DNA of 64,000 nt from G963555815 sp965249615 [NCBI: bacterium] (GTDB lineage: Bacteria; UBA8248; JACPRG01), in NCBI GenBank assembly GCA_965249615.1, contig CBDFMI010000005.1, forward strand, positions 124,001 through 188,000. The letters are read 5' to 3'. Shown piece after piece: positions 384 through 40,461 of the stretch (position 1 is its first letter; every line of letters starts with the position of its first letter). A program made the translations under genes and the position numbers. The notes beneath the pieces were generated by a model. The model was not told the origin of the DNA. It made no database searches and worked only from the letters and a program-made list of their open reading frames with translations.

Positions 384-2316
384 GCGATATGTCGGAATAC
401 CTCCAAATATTCCTGGACGAGACGGGTGAGCAGCTCGACAGCCTCGTCGAGAAGCTGCTTATTCTCGAACGCGAGCCCGGCAGAGTAGAGGAGCTTAACG
501 AGGTCTTCCGACTGATCCACTCGATCAAGGGCGCTGCCGGCACGATGGGTTTCGACAACATCACGGTGCTCTCTCACCATTTGGAGAGCCGCTTCGAGAC
601 CTTCCGATCGGGCTTGGCAGGCCTCGACGAGCCGACCATGAACTTGGTCCTGCAGTGCGTTGACTTCCTTCGCGAGTGCGTGCGGCGCCTGCACGACGGC
701 GAGCAGCTGGGCAGCCCTAGCGAACTCCTCGAGAAGCTGGAAGTGCTGGGCGAACAAGCGACGCAAGCCCCGCCGAAGCCAGCGCCAGATCCCCAACCGG
801 GTAGTGCCCCCGAGGCCCCAGGCGACCAGGCGACGCCGGTGGCCGTTGAGCCGGAGCCAGCTTCCCAGACGCAGGAGCAGGAGGCGGCTGGCGACCGCTC
901 GCGGTCCAAAAGCACGGAGACGATGCGGGTCGGCATCGACCGGCTCGATAGCCTGCTGAACCTGGCGGGGGAGCTGATGGTGAACCGGGTTCGCTTCTTC
1001 CAGATCGCCAGCCAGGTGGGCCCGGCGTTCCGAAGGCGCAACCTTGTCCCCCGGGTGCGGGAATTCGGCGAAAGCCTGCGCCGCACCGTCGAGCACCTCC
1101 AGAACATAAGCGACAGCAACAACGATCTGACGCGCGACATCAAGGAGCTCAGGGCCGGCCTGTCCCTCATTGAGGAACAAAACGAGTTGTGGAGCCGAGG
1201 TCGCGAAGGCTTCGCCTTGATCAGCGAGGCGATCGATCAGCTCACCCGCATCTCCGACAGCCTCCAGCAGCGCGTGCTCGACACCCGCATGGTCCCAGTG
1301 GGACCGCTCTTCAATCGCTTTAAGCGTGTCGTGCGCGACATCTCGACCGAGCGTGGCAAGAAAGTCAGCCTGAGCATCCTTGGCGAGAAGACCGAGCTCG
1401 ACAAGCGGATGATTGACGAATTGGGCGAACCGTTGATCCACCTCGTGCGCAACTCGATCGACCACGGTATTGAGCCTCCCGACGTGCGACTCTCACGCGG
1501 CAAGTCCGAGGAGGGCACGATCTTCTTAGAAGCGAGTCACGGCGGCAGCAACGTGTTTATCGTGATACGGGACGACGGCGGCGGCATCGATGTGGCCCGC
1601 ATCAAAGAGCGGCTTGCCGAGCGTGGGCTCCTGGCGCAGGCGGCGATCGCCGAGCTATCCGACGAGCAGGTGCTCGAGTACATCTGGCACCCCGGATTCA
1701 GCACCACCTCGGAGGTCACTGACATCTCTGGCCGGGGCGTAGGCACGGACGCGGTCCGCGCGCGTATTGGTGAACTCAACGGGACGATTGACGTTGAGTC
1801 GGTGCCAGAGCACGGCACAACCTTCACGATCCGGCTGCCGTTGACCCTGGCTATCATTAACAGCCTGTTGATCCGTGTCCGCGGCGTGCTCTTTTCGATC
1901 CCGATTAACGACGTGCGCGAGATCGTAAGAATTCGGGTGGCCGACGTCAGGACGGTCCGCGGCCAACAAACCATTGACGTGCGCGGCGAGTTCCTCCCGC
2001 TCATCGGCATTACCGATGTCTTCCGCTGGCACGATATCAACTACGCGAGCAGCGCGGCGCCGCCACCCGAGGTGTCGAACGATGGTAACTCCGTCGATGC
2101 AGTGATCCTGCAAGCGGGAGACCGGGCCATGGCCCTGCAAGTGGAGGAGCTACTCGGCAGTCAAGAGATTGTGATCAAGTCGCTGTCGACAACTACGTTC
2201 AAATCCGCGGGTTGTCCGGCGCCAGCACTCTTAGCGATGGCGCGGTGTGCCTGATGCTCGACGTTGGCACAGCGATCAACCTGGCCGTCTTCCACACAAG
2301 GGGGCAACCGGAGTGA
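380..2316 (+). CDS. cheA: CheA sensor histidine kinase, with a frameshift near the C-terminus
   Basis: CheA autophosphorylates and passes phosphate to CheY and CheB. Residues 1-105 are the HPt domain, with the phospho-His at about 47 in LIHSIKGAAGTMGF. An Ala/Pro/Glu-rich linker follows (130-180), then a long dimerisation region, the ATPase (N box HLVRNSIDHG near 354, G1 DDGGGID near 397, GRGVGTDA near 450) and a CheW-like domain. The uninterrupted frame ends at 2254 with an atypical tail. Adding one G after base 2188 restores SLSDNYVQIRGLSGAS, as in other CheA proteins, and carries the frame to a stop at 2314-2316 (645 residues). I read this as a one-base deletion or sequencing error. Confidence 0.9.
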
Positions 2317-2423
2317 CCGCACAGCATGAGAACGTGCTCACCGAGCGCCAGCTCGAGGTTTTCGGGAGAGCACTGCTCTGCTTCTGCGTCGCCGAGATGC
2401 GGGGGCGACTGAGTGATGGCTGA
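2313..2423 (+). CDS. Possible 36-residue protein between cheA and cheB
   Basis: A GTG at 2313 overlaps the stop of the corrected cheA frame (GTGA). The frame runs 36 codons and ends at 2421-2423, inside the cheB start. It reads TAQHENVLTERQLEVFGRAL and then LCFCVAEMRGRLSDG. The composition is protein-like, with an amphipathic stretch, and both junctions suggest coupled translation. I do not recognise a family. It could be a small chemotaxis adaptor, a remnant, or chance. Confidence 0.3.
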   Translation: MTAQHENVLTERQLEVFGRALLCFCVAEMRGRLSDG

Positions 2424-3516
2424 GAAACCCACTCGACTCTTGATCGTAGATGACTCTGCCCTGTATCGGCGGATGATCTCCGACGTTCTCCGCAATGTCC
2501 CGGACGTATCGATCGTCGGCCTCGCCCGCAACGGCGAGGACGCTCTGGTGAAGATCAAGGAGTTCGACCCCGATCTTCTGACGCTCGACGTCCAAATGCC
2601 GGACATGGACGGCATTACGCTCCTACGCGAGATCAACCGACGCGGTCTGCGTTCCAAGGCAATCATGGTCAGCAGCTTCACGTCGCACGGAGCCCAGGTG
2701 ACCACCGATGCGCTGCTCGAGGGCGCGTTCGACTTCATCCTCAAGCCTGCTGGGTACGATTTCGACGCGAACCGCCGGGAGCTGCGCGACGCACTCGAAG
2801 AGAAGATCGGCGCCTTCCGCCAGTCCGAGGGCCACGCTCTGGCTGGGGATCAACAACGGCTCCGTGCCGCCGGGGCTACTTCGCCGAGCGTCGTTCCTTC
2901 GCACGACCAGATGCTGCCGTCCGAGTGTCAGGCGGTCATCTTCGGAACATCGACGGGCGGACCCGCTGCGCTCAAGAAAGTGCTCCCCGCACTGCCTGCC
3001 GAACTCCCTGTGCCGGTCCTCGTCGTGCAGCACATGCCGCCCGAGTTCACGCAATCCCTCGCCCAGCGCCTCGACGGGATTTCCGCACTCCACGTTACCG
3101 AGGCCGCAAATGGAGCGGAGGTCAAGGCGGGCAGCGTGCTGATTGCACCTGGGGGGCGGCAGATGAAGCTTGTCAGAGGAAGGGACCGCGTCCAAGCGCG
3201 AATCACGGACGATCCCCCGGAGGACGGGTATCGACCAGCGGCGGACTATCTCCTTCGGTCGGCCATCGAGATTTTTCAGGGCCAGATTCTCTGCGTTATC
3301 ATGACCGGTATGGGCCATGACGGTCTTGAGGGCTGTCGTGCCCTCAAGAAGAGCGGAGGCCACGTCTTCGCGCAAGATCAGCGCGGCTGTGTTGTCTACG
3401 GTATGCCCAAGGCGGCTATCGATGACAGTATCGTCGACCAAGTGGTGCGGCTAGAACGCATTGGTTCCGCGGTCATCTCCCATTTAAAGCGGAGCTCTTG
3501 TACAAGCGATCTTTGA
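2416..3516 (+). CDS. cheB: CheB chemoreceptor methylesterase/glutamine deamidase
   Basis: CheB removes methyl groups from chemoreceptors and so balances CheR during adaptation. The N-terminal receiver domain (about 1-125) has the acidic pair in LIVDDSALYRR and the phospho-Asp near residue 58 in LTLDVQMPDMDG. The C-terminal catalytic domain has the Ser-His-Asp triad: Ser in IFGTSTGGP (near 179), His in VVQHMPPEF (near 205) and Asp in MTGMGHDGLEG (near 302). Total length is 366 residues, normal for CheB. A GTG at 2413 directly precedes the ATG at 2416, so either could be used. It is the last gene of the chemotaxis operon visible here. Confidence 0.95.
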   Translation: MAEKPTRLLIVDDSALYRRMISDVLRNVPDVSIVGLARNGEDALVKIKEFDPDLLTLDVQMPDMDGITLLREINRRGLRSKAIMVSSFTSHGAQVTTDALLEGAFDFILKPAGYDFDANRRELRDALEEKIGAFRQSEGHALAGDQQRLRAAGATSPSVVPSHDQMLPSECQAVIFGTSTGGPAALKKVLPALPAELPVPVLVVQHMPPEFTQSLAQRLDGISALHVTEAANGAEVKAGSVLIAPGGRQMKLVRGRDRVQARITDDPPEDGYRPAADYLLRSAIEIFQGQILCVIMTGMGHDGLEGCRALKKSGGHVFAQDQRGCVVYGMPKAAIDDSIVDQVVRLERIGSAVISHLKRSSCTSDL

Positions 3517-3557
3517 CGCAATAACGGGACTCATCGCGCTTGGCAAGGAGAGTGCCC

Positions 3558-3916
3558 ATGACAAAGATCCTGGTGCTAGACGATTCTGAATTAGTTCGCA
3601 CTGTGCTCTGTGATATGCTCAGTAAAAAGGGATACGAAGTCATTACCGCCGACCGGGGCGAGGACGCGCTCTCCAAGCTGAAGACTGAGCGCCCCCTTTT
3701 GATGATCCTCGATGTCCGGATGCCTGGGATGGACGGGATGGAGGTTCTGGCCCGGGCGAAGGCGGAGTACCCCGCTCTTAAGGTTATTATGCTGACGGGG
3801 GTTGTAGACGAGTGGCTGGCCCAAACGGCCATTTCGGCGGGGGGGCTGCCTTCATCAACAAACCGGTTAAGCCCGACCGGCTGCAGGAGACGATCGACTC
3901 CGTGGTGTCAAAGTGA
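3558..3916 (+). CDS. Single-domain response regulator, frameshifted in a G run
   Basis: This is a CheY-like receiver protein. The acidic pair is Asp8/Asp9 (ILVLDDSE) and the phospho-Asp is 52 in LMILDVRMPGMDG. It starts at the ATG at 3558, with a GGAG about 9 bases upstream. As written the frame leaves the family after AISAGG and runs to 3932. One more G in the seven-G run at 3839-3845 gives AISAGGAAFINKPV, the usual receiver end with its conserved Lys, and a stop at 3914-3916 (119 residues). A homopolymer deletion is the simplest reading. Partner kinase not identified. Codon use resembles the later core genes more than the che genes before it. Confidence 0.85.
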
Positions 3917-24736: not shown

Positions 24737-24766
24737 TTGACAGTCAGAGGGTGAGCAAGATATATT
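24737..24766 (+). promoter_or_regulatory. Promoter of the first VCBS/ASPIC gene
   Basis: A perfect TTGACA (24737-24742), 18 bases, then TATATT (24761-24766). Predicted transcription start near 24774, giving a leader of about 180 nt before the ATG at 24952. Confidence 0.65.
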
Positions 24767-24778
24767 CAGAATATATCT
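24758..24778. promoter_or_regulatory. Perfect 21-bp palindrome over the -10 box (operator candidate)
   Basis: AGATATATTC and GAATATATCT are exact reverse complements around a central A. The palindrome covers the -10 box and the expected transcription start, the usual place for a repressor operator. The cognate regulator is not identifiable here. Confidence 0.6.
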
Positions 24779-24951
24779 CAATTCTTCAATGTGATGGAAG
24801 TAGGGGGATATGTCCTTCCAAGCAGCAATTCTCACCTAGGGAGACAGATGAGGGAGAGCACGAGGGTTTCAGGGAAGGGAGTCTGAGGCCTGCGTCACCA
24901 GCTTGTCTCGGCGCTGTAGAGGTTCAAGGTCACCTATTGGAGGAGATGGTC

Positions 24952-27210
24952 ATGGAGAAGGGAAGGTGTCGTTGGATGGTTGCGGTCCTTGCGGCCATCG
25001 GAGTTGCGGGATTTGTCTACGGACACGCCGCAACGTCGGCACGGGCGGCAGGAGAAGAGGTCTTCTCACGATCTGAAATTAAACCATTCATTAACGCTTC
25101 CGGTGCGCTAAACCACGCCAGCACCTCGTGGGTCATGGAGACCATGTCGAACGGGGTGTGTGTGGGAGATTTTAACGGTGACAACTGGGACGATCTGTTC
25201 TTTCCTAGCGATAACGCGCCCGACGCCCCTTCGGGGTTCTTTGCTGCGTTCCAGGACCACGACAACAAGCTGTACATCAACCGAGGGGACCAGGACGGTG
25301 ATGGTATCCCTGAATTTGACGAAGTCTCGAAGACTGCCAAAGTGACAGGCCAGGGGACCAAGGGCATTGGTTGCACCGTGGGCGATTACAACAATGACGG
25401 CAGAGCGGATCTCTATATCACCGCTGGCCAGCGTGGATTTGGCTTTCAAGGACACGGCGGTATCCGGCTAGAGGGAGGAAAACGAGTACAGATGCTCCCC
25501 ACGGATGTTTTTGTTTCGGAGAGGACCGACGGCTTCTATGAGTGTGAGGGAGCAAACATCCTTTACCGGAACGACGGCAACGACGCCGCTGGTGTCCCGA
25601 GCTTTACCGATGTGACGGATGAGGCGGGGGTGGCTGAATGCCGGCACGGTTCCTCCGCCGCCTTTGGAGACATTGACCTCGATGGCGATCTCGATCTCAT
25701 GGTCGGCAACTTCGTTGAGTCCGAGTGGTGGTTTTTCAACGAGGAGAACTTTAACGGTACGCGGGACACCCTCTTCGAGAATAAAGGGGACGGGACATTC
25801 ACCGATATCACCGAGCAGGCCGGGGTAGGCGGCCGAAAGATGGTCAGCTATAGGTGGGAAGGCCAGAAGATAGCCGCCTTTAATTCCGACGTCAAAGACT
25901 CAAAGGGCCGGACGGTGGGCGAAGATCACTCTACCACGCACGTGGTTGGGTTTTTGGACTATGACGGGGACCGCTTCCCCGATCTCATCTCCGTCTCTGA
26001 CGCTCCTGGAGTGATTTCCATCTTCCACAACAACGGCGACAACACCTTCACCGATGTGACGGAAGCGTCAGCGACTGACATAGCCGGGGATTGGATGGGG
26101 ATTGCCTTTGCGGACGTGGATGGTGACGGCGATCTCGATATGTTCAACTCGAACTTTGGTTCGGACTGGTTTACCAAAAGGAAGGCCTCGGATACGTACA
26201 TGATCGCCGACGCCGGCGAGTTTAACCGCTGGAACAAGGGTTCGCCCGCAAACAAGCTCTGGCGTTTCGACGGTGTCAGGGAGATAGAAATAGATGGCCG
26301 GAAGGTTCCGGTGCCCGTTATCGCCGACCTTTCGCGTTCCTTGAGTATCGAGTGGGGTGAAGTCCCGCCGGCGACGCTTGACCCTGAGCTGATTCTTCGC
26401 GACGAGTCATACTCCCCGATGGGGCTGGAGCATACGGAGTTCGGATTCGGCAGCATATTTTTCGACTTTGACAACGATACCCACCAGGACCTCTACTTCG
26501 TCGGCTCAATCATCCGCGGTTGCGGCGATACAAAATGCCAGCCACCGCCGGGCGGTGAGCGCTTTAACCAGCGCGGCCCTGGACGGCTTCTGCAAAATCT
26601 GGGCAAGGAAGGCATGTATTGGCGCGACGTGACCTTCGATACCCAGACTTTCAACATCGACCAGGAAAATTATGAGACCCGTGAGCGGGTTGCTTGGGAT
26701 TATCATGAGCAGGGCCGAGGGGTCGCCAAAGGCGATTTCAACAACGACGGCTATGTTGACTTTGTGGTGAGCAATCTCGGGGGTCCCGACTCCAACCTTG
26801 CCGACACCCCGACCCTTCCAAACGGCATGAAGGAGTTCAGGCCCGGTCCCTCCTTCCTCTACCTCAACCCTGGGTATGACAACCACTGGCTCAAGGTGAA
26901 GCTCGAGGGAAACAAATCGAACCGTGACGGTATCGGCGCGATCGCTCGCGTGACGCTTCCCAGCGGCAGGGTGCTCATTGAGCAGGTCACCTCTGGGACG
27001 AGCTACCTCTCGAACCACTCCTTCACCCTGATGTTCGGCCTCGGTAAGGCCAAGAGGGTGTCGAAGCTCGAGATCAGCTGGCCCTCTGGCGAGGTGGATT
27101 CCTTCACGAACGTCAGAGTGAACCGAACCCTCAAGGTCACTGAGGGCGGAAAGCTGGAAAGGGTCAATGTAGCGGGCACAGGCCCCAAGGGAAGCTCCAT
27201 GATGAGGTAG
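24952..27210 (+). CDS. Secreted VCBS/FG-GAP repeat protein with C-terminal ASPIC/UnbV domain (paralog 1)
   Basis: A 752-residue exported protein. The N-terminus (RWMVAVLAAIGVAGFVYGHA) is a signal peptide. Many Ca-binding FG-GAP/VCBS loops follow: DFNGDNWDDLF, DQDGDGIPEFDE, DYNNDGRADLY, DIDLDGDLDLM, DYDGDRFPDLI, DVDGDGDLDMF and DFNNDGYVDFV, indicating a beta-propeller. The last about 100 residues are an ASPIC/UnbV domain (RDGIGAIARVTLPSG ... KLEISWPSGEVDSF). Six Cys positions outside the signal are shared with the paralog at 28.0 kb. I start at 24952, which has GGAGG 8 bases upstream. The role is unknown; such proteins act at the cell surface or in redox enzymes. Confidence 0.88.
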   Translation: MEKGRCRWMVAVLAAIGVAGFVYGHAATSARAAGEEVFSRSEIKPFINASGALNHASTSWVMETMSNGVCVGDFNGDNWDDLFFPSDNAPDAPSGFFAAFQDHDNKLYINRGDQDGDGIPEFDEVSKTAKVTGQGTKGIGCTVGDYNNDGRADLYITAGQRGFGFQGHGGIRLEGGKRVQMLPTDVFVSERTDGFYECEGANILYRNDGNDAAGVPSFTDVTDEAGVAECRHGSSAAFGDIDLDGDLDLMVGNFVESEWWFFNEENFNGTRDTLFENKGDGTFTDITEQAGVGGRKMVSYRWEGQKIAAFNSDVKDSKGRTVGEDHSTTHVVGFLDYDGDRFPDLISVSDAPGVISIFHNNGDNTFTDVTEASATDIAGDWMGIAFADVDGDGDLDMFNSNFGSDWFTKRKASDTYMIADAGEFNRWNKGSPANKLWRFDGVREIEIDGRKVPVPVIADLSRSLSIEWGEVPPATLDPELILRDESYSPMGLEHTEFGFGSIFFDFDNDTHQDLYFVGSIIRGCGDTKCQPPPGGERFNQRGPGRLLQNLGKEGMYWRDVTFDTQTFNIDQENYETRERVAWDYHEQGRGVAKGDFNNDGYVDFVVSNLGGPDSNLADTPTLPNGMKEFRPGPSFLYLNPGYDNHWLKVKLEGNKSNRDGIGAIARVTLPSGRVLIEQVTSGTSYLSNHSFTLMFGLGKAKRVSKLEISWPSGEVDSFTNVRVNRTLKVTEGGKLERVNVAGTGPKGSSMMR

Positions 27211-27531: not shown

Positions 27532-28000
27532 GGCCGTCAATCAGGTTACATCTTTAGGGGAAGCGGCCTAGAAAGCGTGGGCGCGGGTGTCTTGGCGCAG
27601 CGGATGTGACGCCCGGTATTGGTTTTTGGGACCCCTAATAAAGAGACGTCGTAACAGCCAGGAGTGGGGAAGGCGCTCTCAGTGACGTACCTGCCCCGAC
27701 GGGTTGGGCCCGGAGCGAGTTTCCCCGTTTTGGTTGTTCCCATCTGGTAGGGAGGATATCCACTGGAAATCGCCGGAAGTAAAAGAGACGGAGGCAGCGA
27801 TTGGTCCCCGTTGTATCGGCGGTTAACACTTTCAAAGGGAGGGGATGCATATGTAACACAAGGCACCAAAGGCTGTACAGGAGGGGGGCCGACGCCTCCT
27901 TTCTGGGGTTCCAAAGGTAGTTATCAATAAATTTTGGTAAGTACCTGAGACACCCGTAGACATGCCAGGAAGTCATATGACATCTATGGGAGGAAAGTTC
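27532..28000 (+). other. Long untranslated leader (about 460 nt) of VCBS gene 2
   Basis: No supported gene lies between the promoter and the ATG at 28001. The sequence is GC-rich, with several GGAGG-like sites and a short hairpin at 27879-27900 (AGGAGG / CCTCCT). I match it to no riboswitch I know. A leader of this length before a gene with high-expression codons suggests mRNA-level control or a processed RNA. Confidence 0.4.
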
Positions 28001-30340
28001 ATGGGAAAGCCTAGGAGATGTCGCGGGATAATTTCAGTCCTCGCGGCTATCGGAGTTGCGGGATTCCTCTTCGGACATCTTGCGACGTCAGAGGCAGGCC
28101 ACTCAGGAACAATTTCACGCGACAAGATCAAGCCCTTCACTAACGCCAAGGAGGCAATCGGCAACCACTACAACACAACCTGGATGATGGAGACGATGGG
28201 TGCCGGCGTCTGCGCCGTTGACGTGAACAACGACGGCTGGGACGACATCATCATCTCTAACGACAACCACTCCCAGTCGATAACGAAATTCTTCCGCGAG
28301 TGGACCGACTTCAAAACCGCGTTCTACCTGAACCGTGGCGACAAGGACGGGGACGGTATTCCTGAGTTTGAAGAGGTCTCGGAGAAGGCCGGAATCGCTG
28401 GAATAGGCTCCAAGGACATCGGATGCTCCGTTGGCGACTATGACAACGACGGCGACATCGACCTTTACATCACCGCTGGTGTGAGGGGGATGGGTGTCGT
28501 TGGAACTGACGGTGTCCGTATCGCCACCGTCACGACCATCGCCAAGGGTTACAAGGGCGAGACCCGCATCCAGGGTCCCTTCCCTCCGGACGTCTTTGTT
28601 TCCTACAAGCTGGACGGACGCCTTGAGTGTGAGGCTGGGAACAAGGAAGAAGGCGGAAGGTCCCACCTTTACAGAAACGACGGCAATGACTCGAATGGCA
28701 TTCCGAGGTTTACCGATGTTGCAGAAGCCGCGAACGTGCTGAACTGCCGTCAGGGCAGCACCTCCAGCTTCGTCGACATCGACCTGGATGGCGACCTGGA
28801 CCTTTTCGTCGGCAACTGGGTGGACTCGGACTGGATGGCGTTTAACGAGGAAGAGTTCTTTAACGCCTACCTGAACCAGCTCTTCGAGAACAACGGCGAC
28901 GGCACCTTCACCAACATCACGGCCACCGCTGGTGACACCGACCGCAAGGGGTACACCTTCAAGTTTAACGGCGAAAGGATTCCCATTTTTAACCCTGAGC
29001 TGAGAGACGCGAAGGGGCGGACGGTGGGTGAGGACGGTCACATCACCCACGTCGTGTCCTTCATGGACTACGACAACGACCGCTACCCTGACCTGTTCGC
29101 CGTTGCGGACTCTCCGGGCGGAACAATCGCCATTTTCCACAACAACGGTGACAACACCTTTACCGACGTGTCAGAATCGGCGGGAACGGATGTTGCCGGT
29201 GAGTGGATGGGGATCGCCTGGGGTGACATTGACAACGACGGCGACCTTGACATGGAAAACTCTAACTTCGGGTCCGACTGGTACTCGAAGATCAAGAACA
29301 CTGGTGAGCTGTTCATGCTGGAGTCCTCGGACTTCAACCGCTGGGGCAAAGGCAAGACCTCCAACTCGGTCTGGCGGTTCAACGGTGTGAAGGAAGCCCA
29401 CTTCCCGGAGACCAAGTCCCCCCACAAGAATGTCCTGGCTCCGGACATCAGTGACATCACCCGCGCCATTCACATCGAGTGGGGTGCAATGCCCCCGCTG
29501 ACGACGGACCACAACGAAGTCTACAAGCTTCAGTCGTACATCCCGCTGGGATGGGAGAACACGGAGTTTTCCTTCGGAAACGTGTTCCTCGACTTCGACA
29601 ACGATGGTCACATCGATGCGTACCTCGTCGGTTCACTGGGGCGTGGTTGTGGCGACCACAAGTGCTCGGCTGAGACTGGCGAGCTGCCACCTGGCGCTGA
29701 GCAGTTCAAGCTGCGAGGCCCTGGACGTCTCCTCCAGAACCTGGGTCGAGAGGGTATGTACTGGCGTGAAGTGACCCTCGAGACTCAGACCTTCAACATC
29801 GAGGACGTCAACTACAAGACTGGTGAGCGTCTGGCTATCGACTACCACGAAGAAGGCCGCGGTATTGCCAAGGGTGACTTCAACAACGACGGTTACCCTG
29901 ACATCGTGGTCCTCAACGCTGGTGGTCCGGCAGACAACCGCCCAGGGACTCCGGTGGAGCCTTGGGGACTGATGCAGTTCCGTGGTGGCCCGACCCAGCT
30001 GTTCATGAACCCTGGCTACGACAACCACTGGCTCAAGTTCAAGCTGGAAGGCACGAAGACCAACCGTTCCGCCATCGGCGCGGTTGTGCGCGTGTGGACC
30101 CCCAGCGGCAACCTGACAGTGGAGCAGGTGAACTCTGGAATGGGTTACCTCTCGAACCACTCGCTGCACCTCCTGTTCGGCCTTGGCCAGGACAGCGAAG
30201 CGAGCAAGGTCGAGATTTCATGGCCGTCCGGTCAGGTGGACACCTTCACGAACGTGAAAGCGGACCAATTCGTCAAGGTCACCGAGGGCGGTAAGATGGA
30301 GAAGATGGGGAGAGACGTCATGGGTCGCAGCCCGAATTAA
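28001..30340 (+). CDS. Secreted VCBS/FG-GAP repeat protein with C-terminal ASPIC/UnbV domain (paralog 2)
   Basis: A 779-residue paralog of the preceding gene. Signal peptide (RGIISVLAAIGVAGFLFGHL) nearly identical in DNA to that of paralog 1. Ca-binding loops include DVNNDGWDDII, DYDNDGDIDLY, DIDLDGDLDLF, DYDNDRYPDLF, DIDNDGDLDME, DFDNDGHIDAY and DFNNDGYPDIV. The C-terminal ASPIC/UnbV domain has RSAIGAVVRVWTPSG ... EISWPSGQVDTF. The same six cysteines are kept (for example RGCGDHKC). Codons are strongly biased (Arg CGT/CGC, C-ending Asn, Asp, Phe), unlike neighbouring genes, so high expression is likely. Start 28001 after GGGAGGA. Confidence 0.9.
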   Translation: MGKPRRCRGIISVLAAIGVAGFLFGHLATSEAGHSGTISRDKIKPFTNAKEAIGNHYNTTWMMETMGAGVCAVDVNNDGWDDIIISNDNHSQSITKFFREWTDFKTAFYLNRGDKDGDGIPEFEEVSEKAGIAGIGSKDIGCSVGDYDNDGDIDLYITAGVRGMGVVGTDGVRIATVTTIAKGYKGETRIQGPFPPDVFVSYKLDGRLECEAGNKEEGGRSHLYRNDGNDSNGIPRFTDVAEAANVLNCRQGSTSSFVDIDLDGDLDLFVGNWVDSDWMAFNEEEFFNAYLNQLFENNGDGTFTNITATAGDTDRKGYTFKFNGERIPIFNPELRDAKGRTVGEDGHITHVVSFMDYDNDRYPDLFAVADSPGGTIAIFHNNGDNTFTDVSESAGTDVAGEWMGIAWGDIDNDGDLDMENSNFGSDWYSKIKNTGELFMLESSDFNRWGKGKTSNSVWRFNGVKEAHFPETKSPHKNVLAPDISDITRAIHIEWGAMPPLTTDHNEVYKLQSYIPLGWENTEFSFGNVFLDFDNDGHIDAYLVGSLGRGCGDHKCSAETGELPPGAEQFKLRGPGRLLQNLGREGMYWREVTLETQTFNIEDVNYKTGERLAIDYHEEGRGIAKGDFNNDGYPDIVVLNAGGPADNRPGTPVEPWGLMQFRGGPTQLFMNPGYDNHWLKFKLEGTKTNRSAIGAVVRVWTPSGNLTVEQVNSGMGYLSNHSLHLLFGLGQDSEASKVEISWPSGQVDTFTNVKADQFVKVTEGGKMEKMGRDVMGRSPN

Positions 30341-35835: not shown

Positions 35836-37239
35836 TTAGGGCTGCTTTTTCAGGGCGAGGAAGAGGGTGCCCCGGTCTCGATTGATGAGGAGAAGGGTGG
35901 AGGGATTCTTCTGGGCCTCTTCGATGAGGCGGTGGTAGACCGGGAGAGCGGTGACCTTCTGGCTATTGATCTCCAAGATCACGTCCCCAGGCCGAAGACC
36001 GGAGCTCTGGGCGGGGCTGTCGTTTTCCACCCGGGACACGATGACGCCCTCATTGGTCTCAAGGTTCAGTTGTCTTGCAAGGTCCGGGGGAAGGGCGCCG
36101 ACCTCGATGCCCAAGCGTTCCAGCGGAATAGACTGCTTCGGGGCCTCTAAGTCTCCTAGGCGGACCTCCAGGTCAAGGGAGTCAAACTTCCTCATGACTT
36201 CGAGATGGACCTGAGACCCAGGCTCGGTGCCCCCCACAAAGCGGGGCAGGTCCTCCACCCTCTGGATAGACTTCCCGTTGAATTTCAAAATCACATCGCC
36301 TTGGCGAATTCCTCCGGCCGCGGCCGGTCCCCCTTCGGTCACCTCGGCCACCAGGGCCCCTTCCTTTGTCCTAAGGCCGAGGGACTGGGCAAGGTCCTGG
36401 GTCACCTCCTGGATGACGACGCCGAGCCAGCCCCGGCGTACCTCACCGTGGGCCACCAGGTCTGAGAGGACGTGTTTGGCGAGGTTGATGGGGATGGCGA
36501 AACCCACTCCCAAGCTGTCTCTGACGATGGCCGTGTTAATGCCGATGACCTCGCCCTGAGCGTTCAGGAGGGGGCCTCCGGAGTTGCCCACGTTGATGTA
36601 GGCGTCCGTCTGGATATAGTTATCGTAGGGTCCAGACCCGATGATTCTGCCCTTGGCGCTCACCACGCCCACCGTGACAGTCTGAGCAAGGCCAAAGGGG
36701 CTCCCAATCGCCATGGCCCATTCCCCCACCTCGAGTCGGTCCGAGTCCCCCAACATTGCCGCGGGCAGGGGTTCCCCGACCTCGATGCGGAGGAGGGCAA
36801 GGTCTGTGTTGGCGTCCGTCCCGATGACTTCGGCGTCAAATTCACGACGGTCGTGGAGGGAGACCTTGATGCGCGCGGCCTTATCTATCACGTGGAAATT
36901 GGTCAAGATGAGGCCCTTTGGGTCGATGATAAAGCCGGAACCCAGGCTGTGGCGGCCCGGGTTGTCCTGCTGAGGTCCAAAGTCAGGAACAACCTCGGGA
37001 TAATTGCGACGGCCCGGCGGTCCACCAAAGCGTCCGGGAAACCGCCGGGACGGGACGGGCTCCGTGGTGCTGATATTGACGACCATGGGCTTTTGGGATT
37101 TGGCGATTTCGACAAAAGTGCGAGAACCAAAGGGATGGGGGTCGTTCCCTTGCGCCCTCGCCTCAGAATGTAGTGCCCAGAGGGCGAGGAAGATAGCCCC
37201 GCTAAGTGCGAGAACTCTCTGTGGAGGGGACCGTTCCAT
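35836..37239 (-). CDS. HtrA/DegP-family periplasmic serine protease
   Basis: It degrades or refolds misfolded envelope proteins. Signal peptide (LALSGAIFLALWALHSEARA), protease domain with His in LTNFHVID, Asp in NTDLALLRIE and Ser in NSGGPLLN, then two PDZ domains (about 270-365 and 375-460). The length of 467 residues and two PDZ domains match DegP/DegQ. The Gly/Arg/Pro-rich LA-loop region (RFPGRFGGPPGRRNYPEV) is present. ATG 37239 follows a GGGGGG site. The transposon is inserted 123 bp upstream. Confidence 0.96.
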   Translation of the reverse strand: MERSPPQRVLALSGAIFLALWALHSEARAQGNDPHPFGSRTFVEIAKSQKPMVVNISTTEPVPSRRFPGRFGGPPGRRNYPEVVPDFGPQQDNPGRHSLGSGFIIDPKGLILTNFHVIDKAARIKVSLHDRREFDAEVIGTDANTDLALLRIEVGEPLPAAMLGDSDRLEVGEWAMAIGSPFGLAQTVTVGVVSAKGRIIGSGPYDNYIQTDAYINVGNSGGPLLNAQGEVIGINTAIVRDSLGVGFAIPINLAKHVLSDLVAHGEVRRGWLGVVIQEVTQDLAQSLGLRTKEGALVAEVTEGGPAAAGGIRQGDVILKFNGKSIQRVEDLPRFVGGTEPGSQVHLEVMRKFDSLDLEVRLGDLEAPKQSIPLERLGIEVGALPPDLARQLNLETNEGVIVSRVENDSPAQSSGLRPGDVILEINSQKVTALPVYHRLIEEAQKNPSTLLLINRDRGTLFLALKKQP

Positions 37240-37334: not shown

Positions 37335-37369
37335 CCCCTTAAGAGTCTTTTTGTAAAGGGGGTTTTTTT
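37335..37369 (+). terminator. Terminator-like hairpin at the transposon insertion site
   Basis: CCCCTT and AAGGGG form a 6-bp stem with a loop of about 15 bases, followed by seven T. The T run is the part duplicated by the transposon. No plus-strand gene ends here, so before insertion it may have been a leader hairpin for the downstream isomerase gene, or is fortuitous. Confidence 0.35.
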
Positions 37370-37370
37370 A
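37362..37370. repeat. Target-site duplication, left copy (GTTTTTTTA)
   Basis: Nine bases identical to 40453-40461, directly abutting the left terminal repeat. IS1595-family elements usually give 8 bp, so the outer G may match by chance. Confidence 0.85.
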
Positions 37371-37397
37371 GGGACTTATATACTTACCACGCACAAA
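37371..37397 (+). repeat. Left terminal inverted repeat
   Basis: Starts GGGACTTATATACTT. Pairs with the reverse complement of 40426-40452 at 22 of 27 positions. It contains the last codons and TAA stop of vsr. Confidence 0.88.
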
Positions 37398-37779
37398 ACT
37401 TCTTGATCTTCTGTTTGACCTTCCGGGCTTCCTTTAGTTCGCACTCCCAAATAATCTGAGTCTTCCAGCCTATACGTTTGAGTGCGGCCATAGTCTCGCC
37501 GTCGCGTTCCTTGTTCCGTCTCAATTTCGGCCCCCAATAGGCCTGGTTCGTCTTCGGAACGTTTCTTCCGGCCCGGCAGTTGTGCCCGTGCCAAAAGCAG
37601 CCATGCAGGAAGATCGCCCGCTTATGTCGAGTGAAGGCGATGTCGGGCTTGCCCGGCAACGTGGACAAGTTCGTCCGGTATCCCCGATAGCTCATTGCCC
37701 AAACAAGCCGACGCAGCCGCATCTCCGGCTTGGTATCTTTCGACCGCACCTTCTTCATGTGCGGACGGCTCACCATCAC
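37384..37779 (-). CDS. vsr: Very short patch repair (Vsr) endonuclease
   Basis: A 131-residue nuclease that nicks 5' of T in T:G mismatches arising from deaminated 5-methylcytosine, protecting DNA methylated by the companion enzyme. Family residues are all present: RSKDTKPEMRLRRLVW, the catalytic Asp in LPGKPDIAFTRHKRAIF, HGCFWHGHNC (zinc/His site), PKTNQAYWGPKL and IWECEL. The start overlaps the nuclease gene stop by 4 bp (ATGA). The last four residues (FCAW) are coded in the transposon's left repeat. Confidence 0.95.
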   Translation of the reverse strand: MMVSRPHMKKVRSKDTKPEMRLRRLVWAMSYRGYRTNLSTLPGKPDIAFTRHKRAIFLHGCFWHGHNCRAGRNVPKTNQAYWGPKLRRNKERDGETMAALKRIGWKTQIIWECELKEARKVKQKIKKFCAW

Positions 37780-38573
37780 CGGACCCTCTCAATCCAATCA
37801 TCGCTGAACCTGACAAGAGTAAGGACGTGCTGAGGCTCAAGAAGGCCTGGATGCCGGTTGATGCGGAATTTATACGCCGATCCGGGTACTTCCTTTTTGA
37901 CAGTGAATTGAGCGCCGTGGGGCTGCCAAGTGAATACATGCGTTCCCGTCGCCACGTTAAATCCTTCTAGATTGCTATTGCGATTGACCTCCCATCTATA
38001 GTCGGAAGGAGAATACCGGGTCGCCTCATATTCAAAAATGGTGAACTGTAAGGCGTCCATGTTCCGCATCAACACGACGATCCGTAGGTCATCATGCTCG
38101 TTCAAGGATTGATTCACGCGGTCGTTCCAGACGTTCAGGACGGCCTCTCCGGTCGCCGCCACGTTCTCCATTGGATCGTTAATCCCATAAGAGAAAATGG
38201 GCGAATTGCGTCCTGTTATGAGACGAACCGTAAGTTGCTCGAACGGCCTACGAGACTTGACGGTTTTCGCCGACCATGAGCAACCGTTCCAGAGAACATC
38301 GGTCACGCCTAAAGGCTGATCCCGGTGAGTTCCGCTGATAGAATCGGCGAAAATGCCCGCGAAATCGTTGCCAGTAATGTCAGCGTGTCCAACGGCTCGC
38401 GAGCGCGACGTCGTCGGGAAATTCGCCCAGAGGGTAAGGCCCCCTACGCGCTGGCCCTCTTCCGCGAAGCCTTGGCCGCCTGGACGACACTCAAAACCCC
38501 TTTGATTCCCGCCATAGCCAAGGGAACCGGAACCGCGTTGCCAGCCTGCTTGCGGGCTTGGCCGTCGTTGCAA
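37776..38573 (-). CDS. Putative type II restriction endonuclease (PD-(D/E)xK-like), start uncertain
   Basis: Its place between a C5-methyltransferase and vsr, on the same strand with overlaps, argues for the cognate restriction enzyme. GVTDVLWNGCSWSAKTV (Asp92 ... Ser101-x-Lys103 in the longest frame) fits a PD-(D/E)xK core with S-x-K, followed by VRLITGRNSPIFSYGI. Convincing protein sequence begins near DITGNDFAGIFADSISG (residue 65). No in-frame ATG or GTG precedes it; the TTG at 38573 lies 130 bp inside the methyltransferase gene. The N-terminus is therefore unresolved: a rare start, or an indel near 38.4 kb. Specificity unknown. Confidence 0.72.
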   Translation of the reverse strand: MQRRPSPQAGWQRGSGSLGYGGNQRGFECRPGGQGFAEEGQRVGGLTLWANFPTTSRSRAVGHADITGNDFAGIFADSISGTHRDQPLGVTDVLWNGCSWSAKTVKSRRPFEQLTVRLITGRNSPIFSYGINDPMENVAATGEAVLNVWNDRVNQSLNEHDDLRIVVLMRNMDALQFTIFEYEATRYSPSDYRWEVNRNSNLEGFNVATGTHVFTWQPHGAQFTVKKEVPGSAYKFRINRHPGLLEPQHVLTLVRFSDDWIERVR

Positions 38574-39454
38574 ACGATCTCAAAGGAATCCGGGAATCCT
38601 TGGAGCCGCAGTTGCTCTCGCGGAGTGAGCCGCCGCTCCCCGTCCACGAGGAGATAATTATACGACGCGCCCGCCCGCAACGCGCAAGAGTACGGATAAC
38701 TGGATATGTTCCCGCCCTTGTTCTCATGCCAAACGGCGGGCTTATGCTCGCTCTTATGGGCGGCCCGCCGACGCTTTAGAATGCGCTCGCTCACGTAGAA
38801 CTTCGGATCGGGGTCCGTCTCCAGAATCTCGGAGAGCGGCTTCATGGGGATTCCGCCTTCCGGCCAGGGAAACTCATCGAACTCGTCCATTGTCGCCGCA
38901 ATAAATACGCGCTCTCTTTTTTGGGGGAGACCGAAATCGAGAGCGTTTAGCACTTTCCAAGAGACGCAATAGTCTAACTCTTCCAACGCGCCGACGATGC
39001 GCTCCATCGTCTCGCCTCGGTTGATCGTCGTGAGTTGCTTCACGTTTTCCAGTAGAACGGCGCGCGGCCTCTTGGCTTCCAAGAGCCTTACGATCTCAAA
39101 GAACAGCGTTCCTCGAATGTCGCTGAACCCGTCCCGTTTTCCGATTATCGAGAACGGTTGGCAAGGGAAACCAGCGAGAAATAGGTCGTGATCGGGAACC
39201 ATCTTCGGCGTGATCCGGGATATGTCACCCTTTGGGCGTATCCCGAAATTTTGCTCATACGCGACGCGGCTCTCCTCGTCCACGTCGCAAGCTAAGACGC
39301 ATTTCATCCCAAACGAACTCGCGGCTAAGTGGAATCCTCCGATTCCGCAAAACATATCGACGAACGTATTTAAGCCCCTGAGATAGGCGGGCGGTTTCTT
39401 GGTGGCCGCCACGCTTTTGACCATTGCCGGAAACGCGGGGTATTGATCGCTCAC
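38444..39454 (-). CDS. DNA (cytosine-5) methyltransferase
   Basis: A 336-residue modification enzyme. Motif I VDMFCGIGGFHLA, catalytic motif IV AGFPCQPFSIIGKRDGF (Cys98), motif VI LLENVKQL, motif VIII QKRERVF, then the variable region that sets the target and motif X KQAGNAVPVPLAMAG. The start is probably GTG 39454, overlapping the transposase stop as GTGA; ATG 39424 is the alternative. The frame runs further upstream only within the transposase gene. The variable region is short, suggesting a mono-specific enzyme. The Vsr partner supports C5 methylation as the product. Confidence 0.94.
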   Translation of the reverse strand: MSDQYPAFPAMVKSVAATKKPPAYLRGLNTFVDMFCGIGGFHLAASSFGMKCVLACDVDEESRVAYEQNFGIRPKGDISRITPKMVPDHDLFLAGFPCQPFSIIGKRDGFSDIRGTLFFEIVRLLEAKRPRAVLLENVKQLTTINRGETMERIVGALEELDYCVSWKVLNALDFGLPQKRERVFIAATMDEFDEFPWPEGGIPMKPLSEILETDPDPKFYVSERILKRRRAAHKSEHKPAVWHENKGGNISSYPYSCALRAGASYNYLLVDGERRLTPREQLRLQGFPDSFEIVCNDGQARKQAGNAVPVPLAMAGIKGVLSVVQAAKASRKRASA

Positions 39455-40404
39455 GTCGTCAAATTCTTGTAGGTGAGCCTGCGCCCTTCCATGCCCGCCA
39501 CCAGCGCGCGGATGAAGTTGATACCGCAACTTCCGTCGCCGTTCTTGTCGAAGGCGGGCAGGTCCTTGGTGTTCAGCCGGAATACGAATTCGTCCACGTA
39601 TCGCTGTAAGTGTTTTACGCTGAGATGGTGAAAAGTGCCGTGATAGCCGCGCTTGAACAAGGCCCAAAAACTCTCGACGCTATTGGTGTGCGCCACTCCG
39701 TTGACGTATTCGCCCGCGCCATGATTTACGGCCTTGTGGCGGTATTCCTTCAAGCCCCTGTAGGATAGGTGCTCGTCGGTATAAGGGTTCGATCCCTTGG
39801 CGACGTGCGCTCTGACCGCTCCCTTGAGCGTCCGGCTTTTGAGGTTCTTCAATACGCTGGCCCGGACCTCTCCCCTCCGATTGCTCGCGCCGAACACGAC
39901 GGCTCTGCCGACAGGCCCCCGGCCCATGTTCAACCGCTTGCTCCGGTGTCGATTCTTCTCCTTGCCGCCTATAAACGTCTCGTCCGCCTCGACGGAGCCG
40001 CTGATCCGCCCATTCGTTTGGCAAGCCTCGCGGATACGGTGGAGCATGAACCATGCGGATTTTTGGGTAATTCCGATCTCTTTGGCGAGTTGAACCGACG
40101 AGATGCCTTTACGAGCCGCGCTGAGAAGGTGCATGGCGAAGAGCCATTTCCGCACTGGAATGTGGGAGCCTTCCATAACCGTACCGGTCCGTGTCGTAAA
40201 CTGCTTCCGGCAGGACTTGCAAGTATAGATTTTCCCTTGGCGGATCTTGTATACTGCGCCATGGCCGCAATGAAGGCATAATATTCCGCCAGGCCAGCGA
40301 GCTGACTCCATGTAATCCCTGGCGGCAGTCTCGTCAGGGAATTGGCTAAAGAACTGAAAAGATGAGGGTTGCTTAATATTGACGTATTGTTTTTTCTTTT
40401 TCAT
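39451..40404 (-). CDS. IS1595-family transposase
   Basis: A 317-residue DDE enzyme of the ISXO2/IS1595 type. N-terminal zinc ribbon (CLHCGHGAVYKIRQGKIY, then TCKSCRKQF), helix-turn-helix region (SSVQLAKEIGITQKSAWFML), then the catalytic core with Asp in SVEADETFIGGKEKN, Asp in YTDEHLSY and Glu in HTNSVESFWALFKRG. No truncation. It starts at ATG 40404 with only a weak AGG before it. Its stop overlaps the methyltransferase start. Lys/Asn-rich codons in its N-terminus differ from host genes. Confidence 0.95.
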   Translation of the reverse strand: MKKKKQYVNIKQPSSFQFFSQFPDETAARDYMESARWPGGILCLHCGHGAVYKIRQGKIYTCKSCRKQFTTRTGTVMEGSHIPVRKWLFAMHLLSAARKGISSVQLAKEIGITQKSAWFMLHRIREACQTNGRISGSVEADETFIGGKEKNRHRSKRLNMGRGPVGRAVVFGASNRRGEVRASVLKNLKSRTLKGAVRAHVAKGSNPYTDEHLSYRGLKEYRHKAVNHGAGEYVNGVAHTNSVESFWALFKRGYHGTFHHLSVKHLQRYVDEFVFRLNTKDLPAFDKNGDGSCGINFIRALVAGMEGRRLTYKNLTT

Positions 40405-40410
40405 ACCTAT

Positions 40411-40439
40411 AATATAAGGCCTTCATTTGTGTTTGTCAA
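40411..40439 (-). promoter_or_regulatory. Transposon promoter, -35 box at the inner edge of the right terminal repeat
   Basis: On the minus strand TTGACA (40439-40434), 17 bases, TATATT (40416-40411). Expected transcription start near 40404, the transposase ATG itself, so the mRNA would be leaderless or nearly so. Confidence 0.75.
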
Positions 40440-40452
40440 GTATATAAATCCC
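40426..40452 (-). repeat. Right terminal inverted repeat
   Basis: Reads GGGATTTATATACTT inward on the minus strand. Contains the TTGACA of the transposon promoter. Confidence 0.88.
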
Positions 40453-40461
40453 GTTTTTTTA
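40453..40461. repeat. Target-site duplication, right copy (GTTTTTTTA)
   Basis: Identical to 37362-37370. It lies 28 bp before the start of the isomerase gene. Confidence 0.85.

What the first reader, a model, noticed from the sequence alone, without database searches (positions are those of the whole stretch)
37371..40452. Complete IS1595-type transposon that carries a methyltransferase, nuclease and Vsr repair cassette
Seen: inverted repeats at both ends (22 of 27 positions), identical 9-bp flanks (GTTTTTTTA), and four minus-strand genes with overlapping ends. The vsr stop codon lies inside the left repeat and the transposase starts 48 bp from the right end. Known: IS1595 elements can carry passengers, and Vsr enzymes often accompany C5 methyltransferases. 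Inference: the whole restriction-modification-repair unit moves as a single transposon, using the transposase promoter for its defence genes. Vsr would limit the C-to-T mutation load of the methylase in each new host. I do not recall this exact arrangement being described.
Basis: partly seen in the sequence, partly recalled or inferred. Interest (0 to 1): 0.88.

Follow-up and report, generated by a model that had tools for sequence, protein, structure and literature searches.

The report
Jumping gene carrying restriction-modification and repair
A small bacterial jumping gene carries, inside its own ends and behind its own promoter, a DNA-methylating enzyme, a presumed partner DNA-cutting enzyme (broken in this copy) and a repair enzyme, and distantly related elements of the same design turn up elsewhere, so this kind of transposon seems to have picked up such defence cassettes more than once.

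Summary
Window 37371-40452 is an IS1595-family unit transposon: 22/27 inverted repeats, GTTTTTTTA on both sides, minus-strand genes tnpA > C5 methyltransferase > nuclease > vsr. The nuclease gene is broken: against intact relatives (54-67% identical) it lacks 26 nt and changes frame, so this copy has methylase plus Vsr without an intact nuclease. An intact relative models as a restriction-enzyme-like fold. The cargo belongs inside the ends: four other elements with IS1595-type ends enclose tnpA plus an R-M cassette (L001, L105, L014, L023). L023 carries a different C5 methylase and a different nuclease (a PADLOC Type II family) and also ends in vsr. The same cassettes occur without transposase, and transposase and cargo trees disagree, so capture was probably repeated. 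In the window the terminal repeat supplies the -35 box of a good tnpA promoter, and the methylase start overlaps the tnpA stop, so cargo is probably expressed with the transposase. Passenger-carrying IS1595 elements, R-M on transposons and methylase-Vsr pairs are known separately; the searches I made listed no report of this combination. New variant of a known kind.

The parts
37362..37370 (+). left copy of the flanking direct repeat GTTTTTTTA (target-site duplication, 8 or 9 bp)
   Evidence: identical to 40453-40461
37371..37397 (+). left (cargo-end) terminal inverted repeat GGGACTTATATACTTACCACGCACAAA
37384..37779 (-). vsr: very-short-patch repair endonuclease, 131 aa, GTG start in a 4-nt overlap with the nuclease stop; stop codon inside the terminal repeat
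   Evidence: Pfam PF03852 2.8e-24, TIGR00632 128.5 bits against a cut-off of 97.85; aligns with the Vsr structure 1cw0
37776..38490 (-). nuclease gene, broken: N-terminal stretch and body in different frames, 26 nt missing near 38396 against intact relatives
   Evidence: fold from relative L110
38444..39454 (-). C5-cytosine DNA methyltransferase, 336 aa, GTG start in a 4-nt overlap with the tnpA stop
   Evidence: PF00145 1.2e-77; nearest solved structure M.HhaI
39451..40404 (-). IS1595-family transposase, 317 aa
   Evidence: PF12762 7.7e-39, PF12760 6.4e-13; NF033547 196.2 bits against a cut-off of 75
40411..40439 (-). promoter-like site TTGACA-17-TATATT; -35 box inside the right terminal repeat, 6 nt between the -10 box and the tnpA ATG
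40426..40452 (-). right (transposase-end) terminal inverted repeat GGGATTTATATACTTGACAAACACAAA
40453..40461 (+). right copy of the flanking direct repeat GTTTTTTTA

Best explanation
It is a 3.08-kb IS1595-family unit transposon (a passenger-carrying 'transporter IS') that captured a Type II R-M-Vsr cassette. Transcription probably starts from a promoter half-supplied by the terminal repeat and runs through tnpA into methylase, nuclease and vsr as one message, with overlapping stop and start codons. The transposase cuts at both outer ends, so the whole operon moves together and leaves a short AT-rich duplication. On arrival the methylase would protect the recipient before or while the nuclease is made, and Vsr would repair T:G mismatches from deaminated 5-methylcytosine. 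In this copy the nuclease has since been lost by deletion and frameshift, leaving methylase and Vsr. Shown in sequence: ends, duplication, gene order, overlaps, promoter match, broken nuclease, other elements of the same design. Inferred: transposition activity, a single transcript, enzyme activities, order of loss.
For: Family assignments; ends and flanking repeat. Other elements that enclose R-M cargo: L001 (ends 21/24, flanks 7/8), L014 (21/24, 8/8), L023 (24/24, flanks 1/8); L105 (ends 1029-3798, flanks aaataaat/taataaat, tnpA-M-R open, with overlaps). The L023 nuclease matches PADLOC REase_II at 1.3e-121. Of 80 transposase loci 50 have both ends by my criteria, 46 of these with an 8/8 duplication. 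Promoter: in 29 elements with tnpA close to the repeat, a hexamer with 5 or more of 6 matches to TATAAT sits at spacing 17 in 9 of 29, against 4 of 435 at the 15 other spacings. A coupled downstream ORF in 14 of 50, and also in window, L001, L014 and L105. Nuclease model of L110: pLDDT 88.4; all 50 listed structural rows (13 different proteins, EcoRV alone 23 rows) are restriction enzymes, MutH or Holliday-junction resolvases by title, best Z 9.2 over 175 residues, 3ndh. Transposase, methylase and nuclease trees scatter the transposon-borne members.
Against: The window nuclease is not intact. The flanking repeat is 9 bp where this family shows 8; it could be 8 plus one chance base. 1 of 40 shuffles gives an equally good inverted repeat. 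No second copy or empty site of this element could be sought. L023 has no target duplication (1/8). L101/L102, one locus held twice, keeps only a 3' remnant of the transposase. A strong -10 at spacing 17 is seen in window, L001 and L105 but not in L014 or L023, and not in 20 of the 29 elements. Foldseek alone gave no PDB match below E 0.001, and the tool notes that unmatched models often reach Z 7 to 8.
Confidence: 0.85

Rival explanations
1. A plain IS1595 element landed beside a resident methylase-nuclease-vsr locus, and the left 'end' is a chance match.
For: Homologous cassettes with vsr occur without transposase in the held flanks (L002-L005, L008, L015, L018), and 1 of 40 shuffles gave an equal inverted repeat.
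Against: The left arm is an exact copy of the end motif, and none lies between tnpA and the methylase; it lies beyond vsr, and both ends share the flanking repeat. L001, L105, L014 and L023 also have ends beyond their R-M genes.
Confidence: 0.05
2. The element is a decaying remnant: the nuclease is broken, and transposase, methylase and vsr survive only by recency.
For: Frameshifted nuclease; L101/L102 shows similar decay (transposase remnant, nuclease stop).
Against: tnpA, methylase and vsr are open with intact domains. Over 28 distinct loci (33 rows less 5 duplicates) the nuclease is interrupted in 4 and the methylase in none, which fits loss of R before M in a real R-M system.
Confidence: 0.3
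3. Methylase plus Vsr is the functional unit (a Dcm/Vsr-like epigenetic pair), and the nuclease is incidental.
For: Of the three cargo genes only these two are intact here.
Against: The nuclease frame is open in L001, L105, L014 and L023, and no Vsr was found in L001, L014 or L105. The nuclease sits beside the methylase in the 33 rows examined, but those rows were chosen because both genes matched.
Confidence: 0.12

Closest known systems
IS1595-family transposons with passengers ('tIS'): tISCpe8 (lincomycin resistance), MTnSag1, ISNha5 (PMC5704250 passages; PMC11891212 passage; Siguier 2009 not held)
   Same: IS1595 transposase, short terminal repeats, passenger genes inside the ends
   Different: Passengers named in the passages are antibiotic resistance and a regulator; a methyltransferase is named only for another IS family (IS1380). 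No R-M-Vsr operon is named there
R-M on IS-flanked composite or putative mobile elements: PaeR7I with IS1/IS5, PluTI, a Rhizobium plasmid system (PMC3031569 passages; the last two seen only as citations)
   Same: R-M genes moved by transposable elements
   Different: There the R-M lies between IS copies or is caught in a cointegrate; here it is inside one IS-sized unit, coupled to its transposase
Tn7-like transposons with R-M cargo (PMC8649781 passages)
   Same: Transposon with defence cargo; R-M is the commonest defence cargo there
   Different: Different transposase machinery (Tn7 core genes); here one small transposase gene whose stop overlaps the cargo
Stand-alone Type II R-M-V clusters (L002-L005, L008, L015, L018 for type A; Rhizobium pRL11 for type B)
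   Same: Homologous methylase and nuclease with a Vsr gene
   Different: No IS1595 transposase found in the held flanks (type A) or annotated in the stretch viewed (type B)

Membership tests
IS1595 family insertion sequence (passenger-carrying, tIS) | IS1595/ISXO2-type transposase domain above curated cut-off | tested here: met
   PF12762 133.6 bits (cut-off 27), NF033547 196.2 bits (cut-off 75)
IS1595 family insertion sequence (passenger-carrying, tIS) | N-terminal zinc ribbon | tested here: met
   PF12760 48.9 bits, cut-off 25.4
IS1595 family insertion sequence (passenger-carrying, tIS) | terminal inverted repeats at both outer ends | tested here: met
   22/27; end motif exact at both ends
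IS1595 family insertion sequence (passenger-carrying, tIS) | 8-bp target duplication (length recalled; 46 of 50 complete elements here, a count biased by my criteria) | tested here: inconclusive
   9 identical bp with a T run; 8 plus a chance base cannot be told from 9
IS1595 family insertion sequence (passenger-carrying, tIS) | passenger genes between the ends | tested here: met
   methylase, broken nuclease and vsr lie within 37371-40452
IS1595 family insertion sequence (passenger-carrying, tIS) | transposition | not testable with these tools
   no genome held, so no second copy or empty site
Type II restriction-modification system | DNA methyltransferase with intact C5 domain | tested here: met
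   PF00145 261.9 bits over residues 31-316
Type II restriction-modification system | intact partner nuclease in this copy | tested here: not met
   26-nt gap and frame change
Type II restriction-modification system | nuclease family has a restriction-endonuclease fold (tested on relative L110) | tested here: met
   model pLDDT 88.4; 50 of 50 listed rows (13 different proteins) are restriction enzymes or related nucleases by title, best Z 9.2, 4.1 A, 175 residues; Foldseek alone no E below 0.001
Type II restriction-modification system | cleavage and protection at one recognition sequence | not testable with these tools
   specificity unknown; M.HhaI as nearest solved methylase is only a lead
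Vsr mismatch endonuclease | Vsr domain above cut-off | tested here: met
   TIGR00632 128.5 bits against 97.85
Vsr mismatch endonuclease | T:G nicking at the methylase motif | not testable with these tools
   biochemical
composite transposon | two IS copies flanking the cargo | tested here: not met
   one transposase gene in the element and one pair of end motifs in 64 kb

The most novel reading that the evidence does not exclude
This branch of IS1595 transposons is a general shuttle for DNA-methylation and R-M cassettes: new cassettes are repeatedly captured just behind tnpA, come under a promoter half-built into the terminal repeat, and are carried between bacteria and also in viral contigs. 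The R-M operon would then act as an addiction module for the transposon, with Vsr as an optional add-on that lowers the mutational cost of the methylase, also after the nuclease is lost.
Probability: 0.4. Interest if true: 0.68.

Novelty: new variant of a known kind. Interest (0 to 1): 0.56.

Why it matters
How R-M systems jump between distant bacteria is often inferred from phylogeny. Here are IS-sized vehicles with defined ends that place an R-M operon behind a transposase, apparently captured several times, some in viral contigs. That makes testable how methylation and restriction are timed on arrival, whether R-M stabilises its own transposon, and whether Vsr accompanies such movement. The type-A nuclease family also has no Pfam match above threshold, no NCBIfam match for the window copy and no PDB relative by sequence.

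Tried and rejected
Copies and empty sites: no genome is held for the window. In the genome of L001 the transposase occurs once. Among 50 genomes searched as relatives of it (itself included), one other had a match at or below 1e-60, at 44% identity. No listed match outside that genome covered the first 2,190 bases beside the element, so no empty site could be read. The nuclease profile hit 1 of 398 genomes of that phylum, L001's own. The L105 nuclease has no match at 1e-5 in 72,556 plasmid records and one, 30% identical, in 50,697 phage records. The L105 transposase matches 5 phage records, all under 60% identity. The window transposase matches 463 plasmid records, all under 60%, best listed row 44.6%; I viewed two of them: hypothetical genes or an ATPase follow the transposase, and I did not examine the ends.

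Nuclease by sequence: window copy without a convincing Pfam match (best E 0.1), no NCBIfam or PADLOC match. In the 11-member alignment two single members had implausible weak Pfam hits; L110 had one weak PADLOC REase_II hit, E 0.0047. No PDB relative by profile. Foldseek gave nothing below E 0.001, so the fold rests on VIA-align and the uniformity of its list.

Composite transposon rejected (one transposase gene). A chance repeat is not excluded by shuffles alone (1 of 40) but by the motif and by homologous elements. Guessing the recognition motif from M.HhaI or HinP1I similarity was not pursued. The host taxon was not determined.

Literature: each search listed at most 20 papers (of 144, 52, 265, 60, 8, 1388, 31 and 2 that matched). 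Passages only were seen of eight papers. One of them, PMC10214660, reports a type I R-M cluster upstream of an IS1595 copy in Acidithiobacillus caldus: R-M beside, not said to be inside, the IS.

Rows dropped: transposase tree 79 of 84 (L080, L083, L095, L097 short, L088 with a stop). Methylase tree 25 of 33 rows (4 duplicates and 4 type-B rows left out); nuclease tree 24 (L010 also left out). Of the 33 rows, 5 pairs are duplicates: L011/L107, L014/L111, L017/L018, L108/L109, L101/L102. The 46 of 50 count is biased, because my completeness rule used either the duplication or very good ends.

Full report
What is there. On the minus strand of 37371-40452 lie tnpA (39451-40404), a C5 methyltransferase (39454-38444), a nuclease gene and vsr (37779-37384), between inverted repeats of 22/27 matches and inside a 9-bp direct repeat GTTTTTTTA. 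Domains: IS1595 transposase with zinc ribbon, C-5 methylase, Vsr; the nuclease has no convincing Pfam, NCBIfam or PADLOC family. The element is 55.2% G+C, its 5-kb flanks 61.8% and 61.0%. It lies between an HtrA-like minus-strand gene whose start is at 37239 and a plus-strand sugar-isomerase-like gene (names are my reading of the translations), so it need not have broken a gene.

Correction: the nuclease is broken. Aligned with homologues L110 (67% over the body) and L105 (54%), whose frames are open, the window gene has its N-terminal segment (PYPLGEFPDDV...) in one frame and its body (AVGHADITG...) in another, with 26 nt missing near 38396. In the model of L110 this region is part of the first helix, residues 31-46. 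The ORF listed as 265 aa starts in out-of-frame methylase sequence. So the copy in hand has methylase and Vsr, not a complete R-M system.

Do the ends include the cargo? A genome-collection scan with the nuclease found 10 homologous loci; one, L001 (a gammaproteobacterial MAG), has tnpA-methylase-nuclease with ends 519/3233 and flanks ATTTTTTG/ATTTTTTT. A viral-contig scan with the nuclease alignment gave 9 loci, among them L014: tnpA, a KilA-N gene, methylase, nuclease, ends 21/24, duplication 8/8. A scan with the methylase alignment kept 80 loci, of which two had a neighbouring IS1595 transposase: L111 (the same contig as L014) and L105 (ends 1029 and 3798, tnpA-methylase-nuclease open and overlapping, flanks 7/8, a terminase small subunit gene beside it). 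A scan with the transposase kept 80 loci; among them L023 has tnpA, a different C5 methylase (37% identical to the window's over 166 residues), a nuclease without BLASTP similarity to the window's (best E 6.6) that matches PADLOC REase_II at 1.3e-121, and a Vsr (43%), within ends that match 24/24 but without a duplication (1/8). L101/L102 (one locus held twice) is a relative of L023 with a tnpA remnant, no Vsr hit and a stop in the nuclease. So R-M cargo lies inside the ends in five elements and is of two kinds (A: window, L001, L014, L105; B: L023); Vsr is the last gene in one member of each kind.

How common is cargo here? Of the 80 transposase loci 50 have two recognisable ends, 46 of them with an 8/8 duplication; lengths run from 1174 to 4114 bp; 30 of 50 have at least 500 bp beyond tnpA, and 14 of 50 have an ORF of at least 100 aa starting within -30 to +60 nt of the tnpA stop. 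Of 20 proteins from these and the R-M elements scanned by Pfam, hits include N6/N4 methylases (L051; L069 with an Mrr nuclease domain), C5 methylases (L023, L062), Vsr (L023), KilA-N (L014, L076), P63C (L045, L077), RhuM (L069, L089), PIN (L074) and SocA-like (L096); 7 of the 20 had no family.

Promoter and coupling. The right end supplies TTGACA; TATATT follows at 17 nt and the tnpA ATG 6 nt later, 11 of 12 consensus matches; the scan found 3 such sites in 3.5 kb against 1.7 expected, so the match counts only because of where it lies. The position would suit a leaderless or nearly leaderless message (inference). Across 29 elements with tnpA near the repeat, hexamers with 5 or more matches to TATAAT occur at spacing 17 in 9 of 29 and at the 15 other spacings 4 times in 435; the elements are related, so this is not a probability. 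Of the five R-M elements, window, L001 and L105 have it, L014 and L023 do not. The junction of tnpA with the next gene is -4 nt in the window and L105, 0 in L001, +8 in L023, and about -14 in L014, where a KilA-N gene comes first.

Repeated capture. The four type-A transposon-borne methylases need 4 label changes among 25 homologues, at least 3 forced by well-supported branches, and the same holds for the nucleases among 24; shuffled labels do as well (mean 3.8), that is, the transposon-borne ones are not clustered. In the transposase tree (79 rows) the type-A carriers fall in separate places, with at least 3 changes forced among the labelled rows; 71 unlabelled rows were not counted. The L105 transposase is 67% identical to that of L023, while its cargo is of the window's kind. 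The nuclease nearest to the window's is in L110, without a transposase in the held flanks. The type-B nuclease also occurs on plasmids: of 18 records with a match I viewed 4, each with a cytosine methyltransferase beside it, none with an annotated transposase in the stretch, one with vsr upstream; that annotation is incomplete.

Nature of the nuclease. The L110 model (11 sequences, pLDDT 88.4) gives, by VIA-align, 3ndh (Z 9.2, 4.1 A, 175 residues), HinP1I (7.9), Eco15I/NhoI, EcoRV, NaeI, DpnI, SwaI, HincII, two resolvases, MutH and PvuII: 50 of 50 listed rows, 13 different proteins, all restriction enzymes or related nucleases by title; most are PD-(D/E)XK enzymes by recall. Against this, Foldseek gave no E below 0.001, and Z 7 to 8 is common for unmatched models (note). 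Over 33 rows (28 distinct loci) the nuclease is interrupted in 5 rows (4 loci: window, L009, L010, L101/L102; L104 aligned only to residue 212) and the methylase in none. Loss of R while M stays is what a genuine R-M pair should show (established knowledge).

Known versus new. Passenger-carrying IS ('tIS') are described; IS1595 examples are tISCpe8 (lincomycin resistance), MTnSag1 and ISNha5 (a regulator), and a methyltransferase is named for another family (PMC5704250, PMC11891212, passages). R-M on IS-flanked elements and laboratory IS-linked movement are described (PMC3031569, passages), and R-M is the commonest defence cargo of Tn7-like transposons (PMC8649781, passages). Eight full-text searches, each listing at most 20 papers, listed none on an IS1595 element with an R-M or Vsr cassette inside; apart from passages of eight papers I saw titles and abstract starts only. 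Siguier 2009, Khan 2010 and Furuta 2010 are not held, and ISfinder could not be searched. So the combination is best called a new variant of a known kind.

Noticed in passing
L069:4414-8148: IS1595 element with 8/8 duplication carrying a RhuM-family gene and a 538-aa N6/N4 methylase with an Mrr-type nuclease domain: another R-M-like cargo of a different type.
   Followed up: partly
L010:1850-4001: Nuclease gene of an R-M locus split by about 2.1 kb of other DNA that holds a 389-aa ORF (2595-3764), perhaps a transposase (not tested); the nuclease pieces also show a stop and a frame change.
   Followed up: partly
L101, L102 (one locus held twice): Type-B element with only a 3' remnant of tnpA, open methylase, a stop in the nuclease, right end motif at L101:5385 just after the nuclease.
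   Followed up: partly
L014, L045, L069, L076, L077, L089: IS1595 elements in viral contigs carry a KilA-N, P63C or RhuM gene directly behind tnpA; reason unknown.
   Followed up: no
L105:4499-5176: A terminase small subunit gene lies beside the R-M transposon, so the element probably sits in a phage or prophage.
   Followed up: partly
window 24751-27210 and 27962-30340: Two similar long secreted-looking repeat proteins in tandem (FG-GAP-like by eye).
   Followed up: no
genomes of L002 and L010 (handles G002, G010): 13 and 12 genome matches to the L001 transposase, though no IS1595 transposase lies in the held flanks of their R-M loci.
   Followed up: no
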